Assembly (NCBI GenBank): GCA_024687845.1
Contig: JAILEL010000101.1
Span: 1-21,291, forward strand
From: Eubacterium sp.
GTDB taxonomy: Bacteria; Bacillota_A; Clostridia; Lachnospirales; Lachnospiraceae
Direction of reading: 5' to 3'
Length of the DNA stretch: 21,291 bases
Under the pieces are notes generated by a model, which saw only the letters and a program-made list of their open reading frames with translations, did not search any database and was not told the DNA's origin. Position numbers and translations under genes: made by a program. Positions 1,119 through 21,291 of the stretch are shown here, one piece after another; the stretch's first letter is position 1; each line of letters begins with the position of its first letter.

Positions 1119-4004
1119 CTAGTAGGATTCAAGTATATATCCAAGCTTGTAGCCTTCTCTGAAATCATTCCATGTTCCGTCAGCCCATATTCCCAGATAG
1201 TTTTCATCTTCTCCAGTTTCTGTGGAATAGTTATCAGGCTGTCCTGCCGGCCATTCATTATAGGTAAATGGTTCTCCGGTTATCCACTCAAAATTGCCTT
1301 CCTCATATAAGTCATCCGCTCCAAGCCAGTAGCCTGTTGATCTGCTGCTCATTCCACCTATCAGGCTCAGTATGAACTGCATCTCATCAGCTGAAGTAAT
1401 GGTTGCGAGATGGTAGGAGCCATCCTGCATGGAATATGCATCTGATGCGGAAATTGAATCATTCATAATAAAGTAGGTATGTCCATTATATTCACCCCAG
1501 CCTTCACCACCTGAATCTCCGGCAGCTCCACCTGAAGGATCACTAATTTCAACCACATCCACCTGATATATCTCATATTTTCCCGAAGCATCGTAGGCAT
1601 ATATATGTGTCACATATTTTCCATATTCGTCGTTATGATCTGACCTGCTTACATGAAATGTTGCAACGCCCTTATCAAGACTGCCATCCTTCCAGAGAAC
1701 ATCGTCCTGATCATTTCCTCCAGATGCATTCAGAGTCCAGGTTGGAAAACTAACCTTAGTTACTTCCACATCGTCACTTACATCACAAGTCACATCATAT
1801 CCATCACTTGTTTTATTACTGATCTGAACATTTTTTATCTCAGGCTTTTTCTCATCCTTTTTCTCTGGTTTTCCTTTGCTGACAGTTATCATCACGTAGG
1901 AGCCTATGGTAAGCTTTGCGCCAGGTTTTTCATTCTGTTCTATAACAACATCCTTTGCAACCGTTTCACTTGTTGCGTCAACTATCTGATAATTCAAAGA
2001 GCTGGATCGGATTGTATCTATAGCAGCATCCTTCTTCATTCCAACAACATCTGGTACAGTGGCGATTTCCGAACCAGCCGAAGAACTCTTCTCATTTCCA
2101 TTGCCGGTAGCTACTCCATTTCCAGAGGTTGTTTTTGAACTACTGCTAACTACAACATCAACTATGTCTCCCTTTTGATAAGTTTTATTATCTGCAATCT
2201 CATACTTATCCCCATTGGAAGCATTTCCGATATATTCACCAGACTTTCCAGTTTTAGACTTATCCCCCTCTTCAGTTTCACCCTCACTGTCTTTATATTT
2301 TGTATATTGTCCCGGTGTATTATCAATTACAATCCTCTCATTTCTATAAGAGGTCTGATCCATCACAGTTCCCTCAGGCTTGCTGTTAGTATATACTTCA
2401 ATAAAATTCACCTTCAAGCCCGCATCAGTCAGCTCCCGCTCCGCCTTATCCCGGTTCATTCCAACCACATCAGGCACATGGACTGCCGTAGCACTGCATT
2501 TGACAATGCTTATATTAGATCCGTTCTTAACCCTGTCATCATGATGTGTCTGAGAAATGATTTCTCCTGGCTCTGCATTATATACCGGTGCCTCACTGAC
2601 GCTTACCTTTAGTCCTGCATCTTCTATCTTATCCCTGGCTTTAGTCTCAGACATGCCTGTAACTTCAGGAACGCTAACAAGCTTATCCCCTTCAGAAGGC
2701 AGCAGGAAGAATACCAGAAGCAAAGCTATCAAAGCGACAGCAAGAAATGCAGCTGAGGCAATTGTAAATATCCGCACCTTTTTGTTTCCGTCATTGGAAA
2801 CCATCTCACTGTATTCATAGGAAGAAGTATTATAGTCACCATTATGACTATAATCAGAAGAATAATTCTTATTATAATTCTGACTATATCCAATGTTTTG
2901 GTCATAACCCTGGTCAGCACTCTGAATATAGTTTTGATTATAGTTTTGAAACATATTGCTGCTCTTTGCAGCTTCAATCTGATCAGCCCTGCTCACATTA
3001 AGATCTACATCTCTCGGATAGAGAAGAGCTTCTTTGAAATCCTTCATATTCTGAAATCTGTCCTCAGCTCTTACTGCCATGGCTCTCATCACGGCATTAC
3101 TGAACCAGATAGGAACCTTTGAATTCAGCTTATACAAGGGAAGAAGGTTGTCCTCTAGAACACGTTCAGTAGATTCAGTAGGTTTTACACCAGATAGAAG
3201 ATAATAAACGGTTGCTCCAAAGGCATAAATATCCGTCCATGGGCCGATCCGTCCCTCAGAGGAGTACTGTTCAATAGGAGCAAATCCTTTTTTTACTATA
3301 ACTGTAGAGGAAACACTGACGTCAACACTTTCTCCGCCATAATACTTTTCTCTTATTGCACCAAAATCAATAAGCTTAAAGCTTCCATTACGGCAGAAGA
3401 ATACATTATCCGGACTTATGTCCCTATGAATAATTCCGTTGTCATGAATGTAACAAAGAGTATCACCAATATCAGAAATCATTTTCCTGACAAGCTTGTA
3501 GTCTACAAGCTTTTTTGTCTTCTCTATATATTCCCTCATGTTACATCCATCCAGATATTCCATGACAATATAGGCTGTTCCATTCGCCTCAAAGAAATCA
3601 TGTACATTTACTGTACCAGCCTGATTACTCAGCTTAGCAAGACTACGTGCCTCCTTGAGGAATTTTTCTTTTCCATGATTGAAAGACTTAGATTGCTTTT
3701 CAAAGCTTACAGAAACCGTTTTATCTCTGGTTCTTGTTACTATTCCCTGAGGAAAATATTCCTTTATGGCAACCTTTGTATCAAGAGTTTTATCCCACGC
3801 TCTATAGGTAATTCCAAAGCCTCCTGCTCCTCTGACTGTTCCTATGATATATCTCTCATTTATCACAAAACCAGTTGGAAGCTGATTTTCTTTATGAGGA
3901 GGTGTATTTTCTACGAAACCACAATAAGGGCAACAACAGTTGTCGCCCTCATATCCCTGTGGAATACTGAATATTTTCATACAATTAAGACATCTTCTAT
4001 TCAT
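1119..4004 (-). CDS. Membrane Ser/Thr protein kinase with PASTA, GBS_Bsp-like and C-type-lectin-like ectodomain
   Basis: 961 residues. An N-terminal zinc ribbon has Cys5/Cys8 and Cys23-25/Cys28. The kinase domain (about 51-330) has the Gly loop GAGGFG (59-64), Lys81 in VAIKEYF, the catalytic HRDISPDN (Asp195), DFG (Asp213) and an APIEQY activation segment, so it looks active. An Asn/Tyr/Gln-rich stretch (351-400) precedes one membrane helix (about 410-435). Outside are PASTA 1 (442-504), PASTA 2 (507-620, split by a charged insert at about 553-608), PASTA 3 (647-711), a GBS_Bsp-like beta domain (about 720-820) and a C-type-lectin-like domain (about 836-961) with YWLGADD, QPDN and TWND motifs. 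Kinases of this zinc-ribbon class are common in Clostridia, and PASTA modules in PrkC/PknB relatives bind muropeptides. The lectin tip suggests glycan sensing (inference). It is not next to a PP2C phosphatase as prkC usually is. Start site: ATG at 4004, with only a weak upstream GGGTGAT. Confidence 0.93.
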   Translation of the reverse strand: MNRRCLNCMKIFSIPQGYEGDNCCCPYCGFVENTPPHKENQLPTGFVINERYIIGTVRGAGGFGITYRAWDKTLDTKVAIKEYFPQGIVTRTRDKTVSVSFEKQSKSFNHGKEKFLKEARSLAKLSNQAGTVNVHDFFEANGTAYIVMEYLDGCNMREYIEKTKKLVDYKLVRKMISDIGDTLCYIHDNGIIHRDISPDNVFFCRNGSFKLIDFGAIREKYYGGESVDVSVSSTVIVKKGFAPIEQYSSEGRIGPWTDIYAFGATVYYLLSGVKPTESTERVLEDNLLPLYKLNSKVPIWFSNAVMRAMAVRAEDRFQNMKDFKEALLYPRDVDLNVSRADQIEAAKSSNMFQNYNQNYIQSADQGYDQNIGYSQNYNKNYSSDYSHNGDYNTSSYEYSEMVSNDGNKKVRIFTIASAAFLAVALIALLLVFFLLPSEGDKLVSVPEVTGMSETKARDKIEDAGLKVSVSEAPVYNAEPGEIISQTHHDDRVKNGSNISIVKCSATAVHVPDVVGMNRDKAERELTDAGLKVNFIEVYTNSKPEGTVMDQTSYRNERIVIDNTPGQYTKYKDSEGETEEGDKSKTGKSGEYIGNASNGDKYEIADNKTYQKGDIVDVVVSSSSKTTSGNGVATGNGNEKSSSAGSEIATVPDVVGMKKDAAIDTIRSSSLNYQIVDATSETVAKDVVIEQNEKPGAKLTIGSYVMITVSKGKPEKKDEKKPEIKNVQISNKTSDGYDVTCDVSDDVEVTKVSFPTWTLNASGGNDQDDVLWKDGSLDKGVATFHVSRSDHNDEYGKYVTHIYAYDASGKYEIYQVDVVEISDPSGGAAGDSGGEGWGEYNGHTYFIMNDSISASDAYSMQDGSYHLATITSADEMQFILSLIGGMSSRSTGYWLGADDLYEEGNFEWITGEPFTYNEWPAGQPDNYSTETGEDENYLGIWADGTWNDFREGYKLGYILESY
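1122..1499 (-). other. C-type-lectin-like domain of the PASTA kinase
   Basis: This covers residues about 836-961, the extreme C-terminus. It follows the CTLD layout: GHTYFIM, then an alpha-helical stretch with HLATITSADE, YWLGADD, FEWITGEPFTYNEWPAGQPDN, and finally ENYLGIWADGTWND with a last strand GYILES. In the C-type lectin family the EPN/QPD loop and the WND strand form the Ca2+/sugar site; QPD is the galactose-type form. No cysteine is present, so the family's disulfides are missing, as is usual in bacterial CTLDs. Sugar binding itself is inferred, not shown. Confidence 0.8.
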
Positions 4005-4226
4005 ATCACCCGTGGTTTAGTCCTTTTCTTTTACAATCTCAGTTCACTTCATAAAACTATTTTAGCAAAGAACTGAAAACAATTCTATAACGACTTTGTA
4101 TTTTGCAAGCTATACATTGCAAGAATCATTAACTAAAAAGCTAAAATCAACCTATTACTTGGTAGTTTAATTAACTGCATGCATTCTACAGATGTATGTC
4201 ATTTTTCCATCTGGGGGACATTGGTG
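4005..4226. promoter_or_regulatory. Divergent promoter region between PASTA kinase and XRE regulator
   Basis: This gap separates two divergent genes. On the - strand an extended -10-like TGCTAAAAT (4059-4067) lies about 55 bases before the kinase ATG but lacks a good -35; a TTGCAA ... TAGAAT pair with a short 15 bp spacer is an alternative. TTGCAAG occurs twice as a direct repeat (4103-4109 and 4117-4123, period 14), and because TTGCAA is palindromic both strands read it. Further along are a near-palindrome AGTTTAATTAACT (4164-4176) and an 8 bp palindrome TGCATGCA (4176-4183). These are plausible operator sites for the neighbouring XRE protein. No assignment is firm. Confidence 0.35.
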
Positions 4227-4472
4227 ATGAATCAGAAGATCAGAAAAAACAAACTTTTAGGTTATAAGATTCGTGACCTTCGCAACTCCAAAAAATACAC
4301 ACAGGAACAGATGGTAGCAAAACTACAGCTACGTGGACTGGACACCACCAGAAGTCGCTATTCCCAGATAGAGTGTGGAACGTATAATATCTGTATAGAT
4401 GAACTAAAAGCAATAGTTGAGATACTTGAGGTTGATTATAATACCATTTTCGACCTGGATAACAAGGTGTAA
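4227..4472 (+). CDS. Small XRE-family helix-turn-helix regulator
   Basis: An 81-residue protein of the Cro/CI (XRE) type. The start was set at ATG 4227 because GGGGGA lies 9 bases upstream and homology-like sequence (MNQKIRKNKLLGYKIRDLR) starts there; an upstream ATG at 4179 would add 16 unrelated residues. The helix-turn-helix spans about 10-65: KIRDLRNSKKYTQEQMVAKL, then a recognition region with TTRSRYSQIECGTYN and a closing helix ELKAIVEILEVDYNTIF. There is no ligand or dimerization domain beyond this. It is a single-gene unit: divergent from the kinase and followed at once by a terminator. It could repress itself or the divergent kinase gene; its target is not known. Confidence 0.85.
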   Translation: MNQKIRKNKLLGYKIRDLRNSKKYTQEQMVAKLQLRGLDTTRSRYSQIECGTYNICIDELKAIVEILEVDYNTIFDLDNKV

Positions 4473-11248: not shown

Positions 11249-11989
11249 CTATTTACACACAATTGTAACTCTGTCTTTAATATTTTTATCGTTATATATT
11301 TCTATAACATTGTTTTTTAATGCAAGATTTTTAACTTTCTTTCTGAAATAATATATTCCATTCGTGCTGTTCAGATCTTTGATCTTCCACTCCCCATTAT
11401 CTATATAGAAGCAGCCATGAAGACGTGATACATATTCTTTATTGATAACAATGTCACAGTCAGGCTGTCTTCCAAAGCTGACCACTTCCTTATTGAAAGA
11501 GCTGAGATCAATATGAACATCCTTATCATCATAGGTTATAAGGACAATATGAGGTGAATCAGATCTTATTTCTGTAAATCCGCTTTCATCGGTAAATGTA
11601 TTCGGATTGATTGTTACATCTCCATTCTCTGGAAGCATAATTGTAGGTTCATCATCTATATCAGTAAGAGGTTTCAGCTGATCCTCCGGAAGCATTATCG
11701 TAGGTTCATCATCTGGATTAGAAAGCGGTTTAGACTGTTCTTTCGGAATAATAAGTGTCGGAAAATCATCGCTGTCTATATTTCCAAGTGAATGCGGCTG
11801 GTTATTAATCGGGGCAGCTTTAGGCATGCCATTATTTGGAGATGGCTGACCGCCAGCAACTGAAGTGTTTCGTCCCCCGGTCATAGATTCATCAGACTTT
11901 TTATTCAGCAATAATAAAACTAACGCAACCACAATCGCAATTACTGCAGCAGCAACTACAATAACCAGAATCAATAATGATGTTGACAT
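11249..11989 (-). CDS. Membrane-anchored FHA-domain protein with tandem Pro-Thr repeats
   Basis: 246 residues if begun at ATG 11989, which has GGAGGG 8 bases upstream; an ATG at 12013 would add eight residues with a poorer site. A single N-terminal membrane helix (about 4-28) is followed by NKK, so the rest is probably cytoplasmic. The linker holds three 19-residue repeats (74-130) built as DD(F/E)PT(L/I)(I/M)(I/L)P, with Thr78, Thr97 and Thr116. The C-terminal FHA domain (about 148-246) has the key residues SFGR (171-174), SRLHG (188-192) and DLNSTNG (205-211). FHA domains bind phosphothreonine, often with a preference for an aliphatic or Asp +3 residue. The repeats fit that rule, so self-binding after phosphorylation is possible (inference). 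It sits between recJ and apt, where most clostridial clusters have no such gene. A partner kinase candidate lies at 1119-4004. Confidence 0.9.
   Translation of the reverse strand: MSTSLLILVIVVAAAVIAIVVALVLLLLNKKSDESMTGGRNTSVAGGQPSPNNGMPKAAPINNQPHSLGNIDSDDFPTLIIPKEQSKPLSNPDDEPTIMLPEDQLKPLTDIDDEPTIMLPENGDVTINPNTFTDESGFTEIRSDSPHIVLITYDDKDVHIDLSSFNKEVVSFGRQPDCDIVINKEYVSRLHGCFYIDNGEWKIKDLNSTNGIYYFRKKVKNLALKNNVIEIYNDKNIKDRVTIVCK
11600..11770 (-). repeat. Three tandem 57 bp coding repeats with putative phospho-Thr sites
   Basis: Three in-frame 57 bp units encode 19-residue repeats of the FHA-protein linker. The last two are nearly identical at the DNA level over their first third (GGTTCATCATC on the + strand recurs 57 bp apart). 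The first is diverged. The strict 19-residue spacing of one Thr per unit suggests selection on that site. Confidence 0.85.
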
Positions 11990-12060
11990 ACTTAATACCC
12001 TCCATGTTAACATACCATTTCATTCCTTGCTGAATACTCCCCCCTGAAACCCACTACCAT

Positions 12061-18103: not shown

Positions 18104-21100
18104 TTAACTTCTATTTCTTCTCGCAATAAGTGCAAGTATTCCGATTATCAGAAGAATAGCTATTACGGCTATTATTACGATAAGCAGCCAGTTAACTGAT
18201 GCAGCCTTACCAAAGGAGAACTCGTATGCAATTGACGCTTCATTCTCAGCCTGGTCTTTAGCTGTAGCTTCAAGTTTATACTTACCCTTTGTATCTACTG
18301 TGAATGAAGCTTCGTTATCATTTATAGCAATTTCTGCACCATTAAGTTTTACAGATGTAAGTGTATCCTCATCCAGCTGAACTGATACAGTTACATTAGT
18401 TGCAGTTTCAAGCTTTGCTTTATCCTCAACTCCTGTAACGATAATCGTAGGATTCTTTGAGTCAACTATGAACTTAGCTTCTTTGAATTCAGTGTTACCC
18501 ATTTCATCAGTAGCTTCTATTCTGAGAACATGACTACCATCATCTACTGGTGAATCCCCATCATAAAGCACACCATCGATGTAAAGCTTAACATCACAAA
18601 CAGTAAGATCCTTAGCTAAAGAATCTGGTGAGCCAAGATCCCATTTGAACTCTTTGAATATCTTTCCATCATACTTTGAAATATCTCCAAGTGATGGGTT
18701 AGTCTTATCGATTGTGAAATGAATATCCTTAGAGCTTGAGTTACCTGCTCCATCTGTTGATGTAATCTGAATATCATAGATTCCGTCTTTATCGAAAACT
18801 TCTTCCATGCTCTTAATAGTTGTTCCAGCAAATTTGCTTGGATCAAGATCCAGAGTTTCGATATTACCATCAATGTCCTTTCTGGTTCCTGTCATTACAA
18901 TCTTATTCTTTGAATAGAACGCTTCTTCAACAGTTACCTTAAAGCTGACATTCTGGTCTGTCATATCATAGTTGCTTACACCACCAAGTTCAATCTTAGG
19001 AGCTGTAGCATCCTGAATGAGTGAATAACTTGTCTTAGATGTATTTCCAGTTTTATCTTCTGCTGAGAACTCAATTCTGTATTCAGCATCTTCATCAAAT
19101 GTAAATGTTATACTGTCACTTGAACTTCTAGGAGCAAATTCTTCTGACTTAATCTGTCTCTCGCCTTCGCCGTCTTTCTTCATATATACTGTATATTTAG
19201 CAGCTGGCATATCAGCATAGAATGCTTCCTTAATATTAAGTGTTACTGTTGTCTTAGTTGTTGATGAAGCAGGGCCAGTAATTGTAAGCTCTGGAGCTGT
19301 CTTATCAACACGGAAGTTTACATGTCTTGTTGCACTCTTTCTTCCTGAAAGATCTACTGCAGTGTATTGAACTTCGTAATCAGCCTCAGATGTAAAGCTT
19401 TCTGTTCCTTCACTGATCTTGTTCTGTACTACTGAAGTTCCTGATCCCGGAGGGCTCATACTACTGATTCTTGTAAGATCATTTGCATCCTTATATGTAT
19501 CATTTACAGATACTGTGATTGTTCCGTCAGACTTAAGGTATCTGATACCTGAGCCTTCTGTATAGTTCTCTCCATTAAGGATTGTTGTAATATCAGGATC
19601 TGTACTATCAATATATACTCTGATACGTTTTGCCGAATCAGTATCTATTGTTTTGTTGCCAGCCAGATCTTCAGAAACCAGATACAGGATATGCTCGCCT
19701 TCTCCTGAAAGTGTTACTTCCTTTGTATATCTGTTTGTATCTGCTGCATTATCAATTGTTTCAGTAAGTATCGGAGATGTAGTGCTGCTATAAGTATCAT
19801 ATATTTCATACTTAGACAGCGTATCCTCAACGATTCCTACTTCTACCTGAACAGAAGAATCAAAGTAGAGACCATATTCATAGTTTTCTCTCTTGTTTGC
19901 AAATTTACCTGTCTTATTAATGTAATGATTCTTATAATCTGCAAACTTAGCTGGATTATCAGTCTTTACATAAAGGTTATGAGCAGGTACTACTGTGTCT
20001 CTTCCTACGTATATTGTTTTTTCTGACTCATTACCAGCTCTATCTGATGCTGTAAATGTAAGTTCATAAATACCATCTTCAACAATCTTTAGCTTTGTTC
20101 CATCGACAGTTTCTGTCTCCTCTGATTCTTCACCAGCAAGTGTTGAATACAGATACTCAAGATCATATGTATCATCATCAATATTTTTATCAGATGCTTT
20201 CGCTACTACAAGAAAGCTCTTATTAAAATACTGCATATCTGATGGATCATCAATATCATAATTGTTTCCATCCACCTTGAAGCTAAGTGCTGGGTTTGTA
20301 GAATCCACAATGAATTTTCTTGTTCTTGTATTAACATTCTTAGAAGGATCCAAAACAGTTATTTCATATAAATATGTTCCTTCTTCATCACCTGCAACAA
20401 TATCTCTTGCAACCCATGCTCCAGAGGTTTCATTCCATTCATAATCCCCAGGATTAACAGCTTCACCATTTATCTTCATAGATGAGATATATTTTAAGAA
20501 CTGTGCTTTAGTAAGTCCTGAAAGGTTAGCATCTTTTATAGTCATTTTTACAGTAGTATCACCACTATAATATACTGACTCATATATTGTTTCCTTTGTA
20601 TTTCCACTACTATCTGATACATCGTATCTAACTGTTGGTGCTGAATTATCAACCTTGAACTTACCTGATGTACTGGTTTCATTTCCAGCCTTATCCTTTA
20701 CAGTAAGTGTAATATTATATATCTTTGATTCATCTATCTTTCCGATTATTTCGCTAAGCTTCTGCTTACTTTTAACATCTTTATATTCTTTTTCATTGAT
20801 TTTAACAATAATACCATCTGTTTCAGCCCATCCGCTTATATTATCTTCTATATTATAAGTAATAGCTGGATCGCCTGAGAAATAAGAAAGCTTACTGTTA
20901 CTTACATCTCTAAGACCTACATGGAAGGTATTGATTTCAGGTCTTGTGCTATCTACATAGAAGGTTCCTTCCCATTCAAGATCACCTGATTTAAATGATA
21001 CCTTAGTACCCTTTGAATCCTTTGACTCTTTAACCTCAGCCATGATCGGCTCAGCCCCATCACTAGTATAAGTGCTCTTATTAGTACCAGTAGCTGTGAC

Positions 21101-21291
21101 CTTTCCAGCTGGGGCAATGACATAAAGCACAACCTTCTGTGTCCATGTAGTACTTCCTGCAGCCGCTACATCAAGCTTACTTCCAAGGTCAATGCTCTTA
21201 ATCTTAATCTGATCCACGCTTACAACGCCATTCTTGTTTTTGAATGTCAGGAATATTCCACCATACTCCTTTGTAGGAGCCGGATCAACTA
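18104..21291 (-). CDS. Ig-like repeat surface protein with C-terminal membrane anchor (5' truncated)
   Basis: At least 1061 residues; the frame is open through the right edge, so the N-terminus and signal peptide are outside. The GTG at 21217 is internal: 24 more in-frame codons precede it. The visible part is a chain of about eight Ig-like beta domains of roughly 90-130 residues, each ending in a (V/I)D(S/K/N)xxP joint (for example VDNSAP, VDSTNP, IDSTDP, VDKTAP, IDKTNP, VDSKNP) and most holding a D.AGN-type turn. The C-terminus is one hydrophobic helix (last 30 residues, starting NWLLIVIIAVIAIL) ending in ARRNRS, a stop-transfer signal. There is no LPxTG. It is therefore likely a membrane-tethered extracellular stalk or adhesin; ligand and N-terminal head domain are unknown. 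Only one cysteine was noticed in the visible part. Confidence 0.88.
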   Translation of the reverse strand, partial: VDPAPTKEYGGIFLTFKNKNGVVSVDQIKIKSIDLGSKLDVAAAGSTTWTQKVVLYVIAPAGKVTATGTNKSTYTSDGAEPIMAEVKESKDSKGTKVSFKSGDLEWEGTFYVDSTRPEINTFHVGLRDVSNSKLSYFSGDPAITYNIEDNISGWAETDGIIVKINEKEYKDVKSKQKLSEIIGKIDESKIYNITLTVKDKAGNETSTSGKFKVDNSAPTVRYDVSDSSGNTKETIYESVYYSGDTTVKMTIKDANLSGLTKAQFLKYISSMKINGEAVNPGDYEWNETSGAWVARDIVAGDEEGTYLYEITVLDPSKNVNTRTRKFIVDSTNPALSFKVDGNNYDIDDPSDMQYFNKSFLVVAKASDKNIDDDTYDLEYLYSTLAGEESEETETVDGTKLKIVEDGIYELTFTASDRAGNESEKTIYVGRDTVVPAHNLYVKTDNPAKFADYKNHYINKTGKFANKRENYEYGLYFDSSVQVEVGIVEDTLSKYEIYDTYSSTTSPILTETIDNAADTNRYTKEVTLSGEGEHILYLVSEDLAGNKTIDTDSAKRIRVYIDSTDPDITTILNGENYTEGSGIRYLKSDGTITVSVNDTYKDANDLTRISSMSPPGSGTSVVQNKISEGTESFTSEADYEVQYTAVDLSGRKSATRHVNFRVDKTAPELTITGPASSTTKTTVTLNIKEAFYADMPAAKYTVYMKKDGEGERQIKSEEFAPRSSSDSITFTFDEDAEYRIEFSAEDKTGNTSKTSYSLIQDATAPKIELGGVSNYDMTDQNVSFKVTVEEAFYSKNKIVMTGTRKDIDGNIETLDLDPSKFAGTTIKSMEEVFDKDGIYDIQITSTDGAGNSSSKDIHFTIDKTNPSLGDISKYDGKIFKEFKWDLGSPDSLAKDLTVCDVKLYIDGVLYDGDSPVDDGSHVLRIEATDEMGNTEFKEAKFIVDSKNPTIIVTGVEDKAKLETATNVTVSVQLDEDTLTSVKLNGAEIAINDNEASFTVDTKGKYKLEATAKDQAENEASIAYEFSFGKAASVNWLLIVIIAVIAILLIIGILALIARRNRS

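What the first reader, a model, noticed from the sequence alone, without database searches (positions are those of the whole stretch)
1119..4004. Bacterial receptor Ser/Thr kinase tipped with a C-type-lectin-like domain
One chain joins a cytoplasmic zinc ribbon and an apparently active kinase (Lys81, HRD Asp195, DFG Asp213), a membrane helix, three PASTA modules, a GBS_Bsp-like domain and a terminal CTLD with WLGADD, QPDN and WND motifs. PASTA kinases of the PrkC/PknB group are known muropeptide sensors, and lectin receptor kinases are known from plants. This layout would be an independent bacterial version, possibly sensing host, diet or neighbour glycans. Domain calls are read from sequence; glycan sensing is inferred.
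Basis: partly seen in the sequence, partly recalled or inferred. Interest (0 to 1): 0.72.

Follow-up and report, generated by a model that had tools for sequence, protein, structure and literature searches.

The report
Bacterial receptor kinase with lectin tip
A bacterium of a gut-dwelling family carries a membrane signalling enzyme whose outer end is a sugar-binding domain like those of animal lectins; it probably lets the cell sense sugars of cell walls, and related bacteria have coupled the same two parts in other ways.

The parts
1119..4004 (-). whole receptor kinase gene, 961 aa
   Evidence: ORF; 99% identical protein P0001 elsewhere
3921..3992 (-). N-terminal cytoplasmic zinc ribbon (C5, C8, C25, C28)
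   Evidence: read from sequence; same MNRRC..C..CPFCGF-type start in genus kinases; no Pfam hit here
3024..3872 (-). Ser/Thr kinase domain, residues 45-327, motifs intact
   Evidence: Pfam Pkinase 99.5 bits; motifs
2700..2768 (-). transmembrane helix, residues 413-435
   Evidence: hydropathy maximum
2496..2690 (-). PASTA 1
   Evidence: three PASTA stretches in Pfam; borders by eye
2100..2492 (-). PASTA 2 with an insertion
   Evidence: Pfam PASTA; borders by eye
1872..2063 (-). PASTA 3 (residues 648-711)
   Evidence: Pfam best stretch 649-710
1569..1838 (-). GBS_Bsp-like domain (residues 723-812)
   Evidence: Pfam PF08481 39.4 bits, cut-off 31.6
1125..1502 (-). C-type lectin domain, residues 835-960, without cysteines
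   Evidence: Pfam Lectin_C; AF2; PDB comparison
1164..1241 (-). long-loop calcium/sugar site: Q922-P-D924, E934, W945-N946-D947
   Evidence: ligand positions recalled from mannose-binding protein
4179..4472 (+). small HTH (XRE-type) gene divergent from the kinase; link unproven
   Evidence: Pfam HTH_19 39.4 bits

Best explanation
This is a one-pass membrane receptor Ser/Thr kinase of a Lachnospiraceae zinc-ribbon kinase family that keeps one cytoplasmic kinase and changes ectodomains. Its ectodomain is a rod: three PASTA modules (peptidoglycan contact), a GBS_Bsp-like spacer and a distal QPD-type C-type lectin domain. Shown here: the architecture, the lectin fold, the complete set of ligand positions, the kinship of the GBS_Bsp+CTLD pair with wall-hydrolase and choline-binding proteins, and kinase-CTLD coupling in relatives by fusion or by gene neighbourhood. 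Inferred: the CTLD binds, with calcium, a galactose/N-acetylhexosamine-type sugar exposed in cell-wall polysaccharide or peptidoglycan (own wall or a neighbour's). Binding at several points along the wall clusters the kinase, which trans-phosphorylates and reports wall state or turnover to cytoplasmic targets. The CTLD would thus add a second, sugar-specific reading to the PASTA reading of muropeptides.
For: CTLD by profile, by PDB sequence match and by fold, nearest to galactose-type lectins such as CEL-I, the rattlesnake lectin, MGL and ASGR1. Ligand pattern QPD-E-ND complete. GBS_Bsp-CTLD on wall proteins: by the precomputed domains, 10 of 12 non-kinase hits with GBS_Bsp carry choline-binding repeats and/or a wall-hydrolase domain (Amidase_6, CHAP, M23, NlpC/P60); my own Pfam scan of 7 of those 12 plus P0072 found GBS_Bsp and choline-binding repeats or M23 in 8 of 8, and Lectin_C in 7 of 8 (not P0019, which matches the query's CTLD by search). 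The CTLD tree puts the query in a 26-row clade (100/99) with those proteins. Split version in relative G002: a membrane protein with two CTLDs (51% identical to the query's), then 41 bases downstream a kinase 55% identical to the query's. Fusions of the same kinase family to a CTLD: G213 and G118, and G159, whose contig ends inside the frame. NagZ-like GH3 gene beside membrane CTLD genes in 19 distinct pairs, 17 with the CTLD first, one of them the G159 kinase-CTLD. Literature passages: PASTA kinases bind muropeptides and dimerise (PMC6213207); animal CTLDs Reg3A and MBL bind peptidoglycan (PMC6448482).
Against: No ligand, calcium binding or kinase activity measured. The ligand code of animal lectins may not carry over: the P0034-type kinase CTLDs lack the E/ND pattern in my alignment, and only 4 of 11 kinase-fused CTLDs, query included, have the full pattern. 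No wall gene is fused or directly adjacent to this kinase; the window's NlpC/P60 gene with choline-binding repeats is 12 kb away. Wall-anchored hydrolases may carry CTLDs to bind something other than their own wall. In the order-wide sample none of 42 CTLD frames examined had a kinase in the fetched flanks. No listed match in 61 genus genomes spans kinase and CTLD.
Confidence: 0.45

Rival explanations
1. The lectin tip recognises foreign glycans (host mucin, diet or rumen plant polysaccharide, or another microbe) and the kinase switches gene expression or surface proteins in response.
For: QPD-type site nearest to GalNAc/galactose lectins; nearest named relatives are rumen and gut Lachnospiraceae; CTLDs also sit on large surface proteins with Big_2, LRR_5 or ricin-type domains.
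Against: The closest CTLD kin travel with wall hydrolases and choline-binding repeats, and membrane CTLD genes pair with NagZ-like GH3 genes. No polysaccharide-utilisation gene recognised among the window ORFs (not every ORF was scanned).
Confidence: 0.27
2. The CTLD binds a protein, or only anchors and positions the receptor (for example at septa), and does not transmit a sugar signal; PASTA modules alone set kinase activity.
For: CTLDs often bind proteins (established knowledge); several kinase-fused CTLDs lack the full ligand pattern.
Against: The query keeps all five ligand positions, and D203, N204, W224 and D226 of the model are invariant in the 16-row alignment. Relatives couple CTLD and kinase without any PASTA: L118 and L130 by fusion, L117 by neighbourhood.
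Confidence: 0.2
3. It is a phage-defence kinase of the PD-T4-6 or similar type.
For: PADLOC PD-T4-6 models match the protein, best 178.6 bits.
Against: The match spans kinase and PASTA regions common to this superfamily; no cut-offs are given there; the canonical PASTA-kinase model scores higher (262.8). No neighbour looks like a defence gene by eye; the other window genes were not scanned against PADLOC.
Confidence: 0.04
4. The CTLD end is an assembly chimera.
For: No full-length copy among the listed matches in 61 genus genomes or in genome contigs by the first scan.
Against: P0001, 99% identical with 10 member sequences on another contig, has the same architecture; GC of the CTLD part (0.437) equals that of PASTA 1 (0.436) in the same gene.
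Confidence: 0.01

Closest known systems
PASTA Ser/Thr kinases PrkC/PknB/Stk1 (NF033483)
   Same: cytoplasmic kinase, one membrane helix, several PASTA modules
   Different: scores 262.8 against the cut-off 450; N-terminal zinc ribbon; GBS_Bsp and CTLD appended; relatives have an over-cut-off kinase elsewhere; the directly adjacent genes are not a phosphatase
Cyanobacterial retroelement-target kinases with C-terminal CLec (PMC7517822, passages)
   Same: bacterial Ser/Thr kinase with a C-terminal CTLD-fold domain thought to sense a ligand
   Different: there the CLec is the hypervariable retroelement type; here a PF00059 type with calcium/sugar positions behind a membrane helix and PASTA; no reverse transcriptase noticed in the window (no dedicated search)
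Zinc-ribbon kinase-CTLD fusions of Lachnospiraceae (L118/G213, L130/G118, L149/G159)
   Same: same kinase family, membrane helix, C-terminal CTLD
   Different: no PASTA or GBS_Bsp by Pfam in L118 and L130 (L149 is cut and was not scanned); CTLDs from other branches of the tree
P0034-type kinases (P0034, P0174, P0176-P0179)
   Same: kinase, membrane helix, C-terminal CTLD
   Different: no PASTA in the precomputed domains, no zinc ribbon by eye; CTLD ligand pattern altered in my alignment
GBS_Bsp+CTLD wall proteins (for example P0004, P0009, P0011, P0019, P0072)
   Same: the same GBS_Bsp-CTLD pair, up to 59% identical CTLD
   Different: hydrolases or choline-binding-repeat proteins, no kinase
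Plant lectin receptor-like kinases (search listing of PMC7293193)
   Same: lectin outside, Ser/Thr kinase inside
   Different: no common ancestry of the architecture is implied

Membership tests
Stk1/PrkC/PknB PASTA kinase (NF033483 equivalog) | whole-protein score over the curated cut-off of 450 bits | tested here: not met
   262.8 bits
Stk1/PrkC/PknB PASTA kinase (NF033483 equivalog) | extracellular PASTA modules behind one membrane helix | tested here: met
   three PASTA stretches; helix 413-435
Stk1/PrkC/PknB PASTA kinase (NF033483 equivalog) | is the genome's only candidate orthologue | tested here: inconclusive
   own genome not held; 18 of 18 relatives have a separate over-cut-off kinase
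Stk1/PrkC/PknB PASTA kinase (NF033483 equivalog) | co-encoded, adjacent PP2C phosphatase (general, not universal) | tested here: not met
   adjacent genes are a response regulator, a histidine-kinase fragment, an HTH protein and hisS; not every window ORF was scanned
C-type lectin domain (PF00059) | Pfam score over gathering threshold | tested here: met
   28.6 against 22.6 bits
C-type lectin domain (PF00059) | CTLD fold | tested here: met
C-type lectin domain (PF00059) | calcium/sugar site residues | tested here: met
   Q922, D924, E934, N946, D947; ligand positions recalled
C-type lectin domain (PF00059) | conserved disulphides of animal CRDs | tested here: not met
   no cysteine in the query CTLD
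C-type lectin domain (PF00059) | calcium-dependent sugar binding | not testable with these tools
   needs protein
retroelement (DGR) CLec kinase | reverse transcriptase and template repeat nearby | not tested
   none named among the window proteins scanned; no dedicated search
active Ser/Thr kinase | catalytic motifs | tested here: met
   GAGGFG, VAIK, HRD, DFG

The most novel reading that the evidence does not exclude
Lachnospiraceae have repeatedly built their own lectin receptor kinases: a fixed zinc-ribbon kinase chassis to which calcium-type lectin domains are coupled by fusion or by operon, forming a bacterial repertoire of glycan receptors that read wall sugars together with NagZ-like hydrolases, parallel to the lectin receptor kinases of plants.
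Probability: 0.33. Interest if true: 0.75.

Novelty: new variant of a known kind. Interest (0 to 1): 0.52.

Why it matters
What PASTA kinases read besides muropeptides is open. A natural kinase with a second, testable sugar-binding tip, and a relative in which tip and kinase are two adjacent genes, gives defined proteins for testing whether a bacterial kinase can be switched by a specific sugar. If wall sugars are the ligand, it would link wall turnover to Ser/Thr phosphorylation in a major gut and rumen family.

Tried and rejected
Synteny: of 80 RelA loci (many too short to reach the site) four had any kinase match and only L002 a close one, directly after hemZ, where the window has hisS next, and with another ectodomain (gene names by eye; what follows it lies beyond the locus). 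L001 has no kinase there; the gene after hisS looks like aspS by eye. So no fixed orthologous site.

One common origin of all kinase-CTLD proteins: not supported; the CTLDs fall on separate branches (few columns, many open forks).

P0034 as a wide family: the class-wide search (391 genomes, 370 with a match) gave kinase matches only; none of the listed rows reaches its CTLD (residues 555-700), and no CTLD was found in the 12 fetched loci with 16 kinase frames.

Chance neighbourhood: for the Lachnospiraceae sample I expected 0.045 kinase within 500 bases on the same strand and saw 3 (G002, G212, G094) among 62 unfused CTLD frames. This is post hoc, assumes even spread, and the order-wide sample gave none among 42 CTLD frames in 40 loci, some frames counted twice. 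64 of the 65 frames were fetched (not G172:C31); many with only about 1.5 kb of flank, and for frames over 1,000 aa the far N-terminus was often not seen. The G094 kinase is not of the zinc-ribbon type by eye.

Foreign origin of the CTLD part by composition: GC 0.385-0.437 across the domains, CTLD 0.437 and PASTA 1 0.436, against 0.364-0.397 in four neighbouring genes; no clear signal. Defence kinase: weak. The second fold job was not used. A fold absent from the lists says nothing about the GBS_Bsp part, which was barely tested there.

Full report
What is there. The minus-strand ORF 1119-4004 encodes 961 residues. Pfam finds PASTA (three stretches), Pkinase, GBS_Bsp-like and Lectin_C, all over their curated cut-offs. 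The four cysteines of the N-terminal ribbon and the membrane helix at about 413-435 are read from the sequence and its hydropathy. P0001, 953 aa and 99% identical, repeats the architecture on another contig; its sequence starts eight residues later, but genus kinases share the MNRRC-type start.

The kinase end. The NCBI PASTA-kinase equivalog scores it 262.8, below 450, while each of 18 relatives has a separate kinase over that cut-off. Seven genus kinases that I read are 46-61% identical over the first 326 to 522 residues and end in other things: a DUF6273 domain in L206 and nothing known to Pfam in L205; other ectodomains in L002, L212 and L213, and no evident ectodomain in L209 and L211, by eye. 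So the chassis is kept and the sensor changes.

Coupling of CTLD and kinase elsewhere. In the protein database 8 proteins carry both Pfam domains: P0001, P0034, P0055 (3 of 55) and P0034, P0174, P0176-P0179 (6 of 19). Of the 120 listed relatives of the whole protein (5,641 matches among 7,984 candidates), only P0001 has both PASTA and Lectin_C. In 299 genomes of the family of G002 (Lachnospiraceae by its record title), 46 have Lectin_C at 69 places, 65 frames. Three frames are fused to a kinase: G213 and G118 complete, G159 cut by the contig end, where the NF033483 search sees the kinase C-lobe in the CTLD frame (26.6 bits). Three more lie next to a kinase on the same strand: G002, G212, G094. 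G002 is the clearest: a membrane protein with two CTLDs, then after 41 bases a zinc-ribbon kinase, both close to the query's parts. In G350 a zinc-ribbon CTLD membrane protein lies in a cluster with three kinases, one gene away from the nearest. In the order-wide sample 42 of 392 genomes have Lectin_C, and none of the 42 CTLD frames examined there (some counted twice) had a kinase.

What the CTLD travels with. The tree of 74 CTLDs puts the query in a 16-row set (95/85) inside a 26-row set (100/99) of GBS_Bsp and choline-binding proteins plus the G002 operon CTLDs; the other kinase CTLDs fall elsewhere (many forks open). In one search, 13 of 55 proteins have GBS_Bsp; apart from P0001, 10 of 12 carry choline-binding repeats and/or a wall-hydrolase domain (the exceptions are P0018 and P0052). 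P0072 has an M23 peptidase, four GBS_Bsp and two CTLDs. Unexpectedly, membrane CTLD genes are repeatedly the direct same-strand neighbour of a GH3 gene: 20 loci, 19 distinct pairs, 17 with the CTLD first (order; L123 from its frame list and the Lectin_C place), against 132 loci with a CTLD match, duplicates and short flanks included. The KHFPGHG motif is in 18 of the 19 rows printed, one of them a duplicate. Five GH3 proteins were scanned: the best NCBIfam match in each is beta-N-acetylhexosaminidase (PRK05337; NagZ, recalled name), 154-202 bits, below the cut-off 207. The G159 kinase-CTLD is one of the 19.

Interpretation. PASTA kinases bind muropeptides and dimerise (PMC6213207 passages), and animal CTLDs can bind peptidoglycan (PMC6448482 passages). 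Together with the company the CTLD keeps, I think the receptor reads wall sugars, own or neighbours', rather than host or diet glycans. The signal path is unknown; an FHA protein, membrane-anchored by eye, is encoded 7 kb away but separated by housekeeping genes.

Novelty. [quoted passage not shown] I found no account of a PASTA kinase with a CTLD in ten searches of the open PMC library (titles, abstract starts and passages of four papers seen); subscription papers are not covered. Hence new variant of a known kind.

Noticed in passing
L084, L086, L083, L200, L141, L148, L149, L150, L201, L203, L244, L260 and others: Membrane CTLD genes directly followed on the same strand by a NagZ-like GH3 gene; 19 distinct pairs among fetched loci, 17 with the CTLD first, frames often overlapping.
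   Followed up: partly
L084:1429-3309, L086:1429-3267: Membrane proteins joining a vWA domain and a C-terminal CTLD (Pfam on L084; L086 by eye), with a zinc ribbon at the N-terminus by eye.
   Followed up: partly
L118:4878-10999: Four zinc-ribbon kinases in tandem in G213, one of them carrying the CTLD.
   Followed up: partly
L204:1-14000: Cluster in G350 of three kinases with different ectodomains, two resembling solute-binding proteins by eye, beside a zinc-ribbon CTLD membrane protein.
   Followed up: no
L206:807-2807: Closest genus kinase (61% over the first 326 residues) ends in a DUF6273 domain.
   Followed up: no
window 11249-12013: FHA-domain protein, a possible phosphothreonine reader, membrane-anchored by eye, encoded just upstream of a phosphoribosyltransferase gene.
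   Followed up: no
window 18104-21289: Large surface protein of Big/OmpL47-type repeats with a C-terminal membrane helix by eye, cut by the window end.
   Followed up: no
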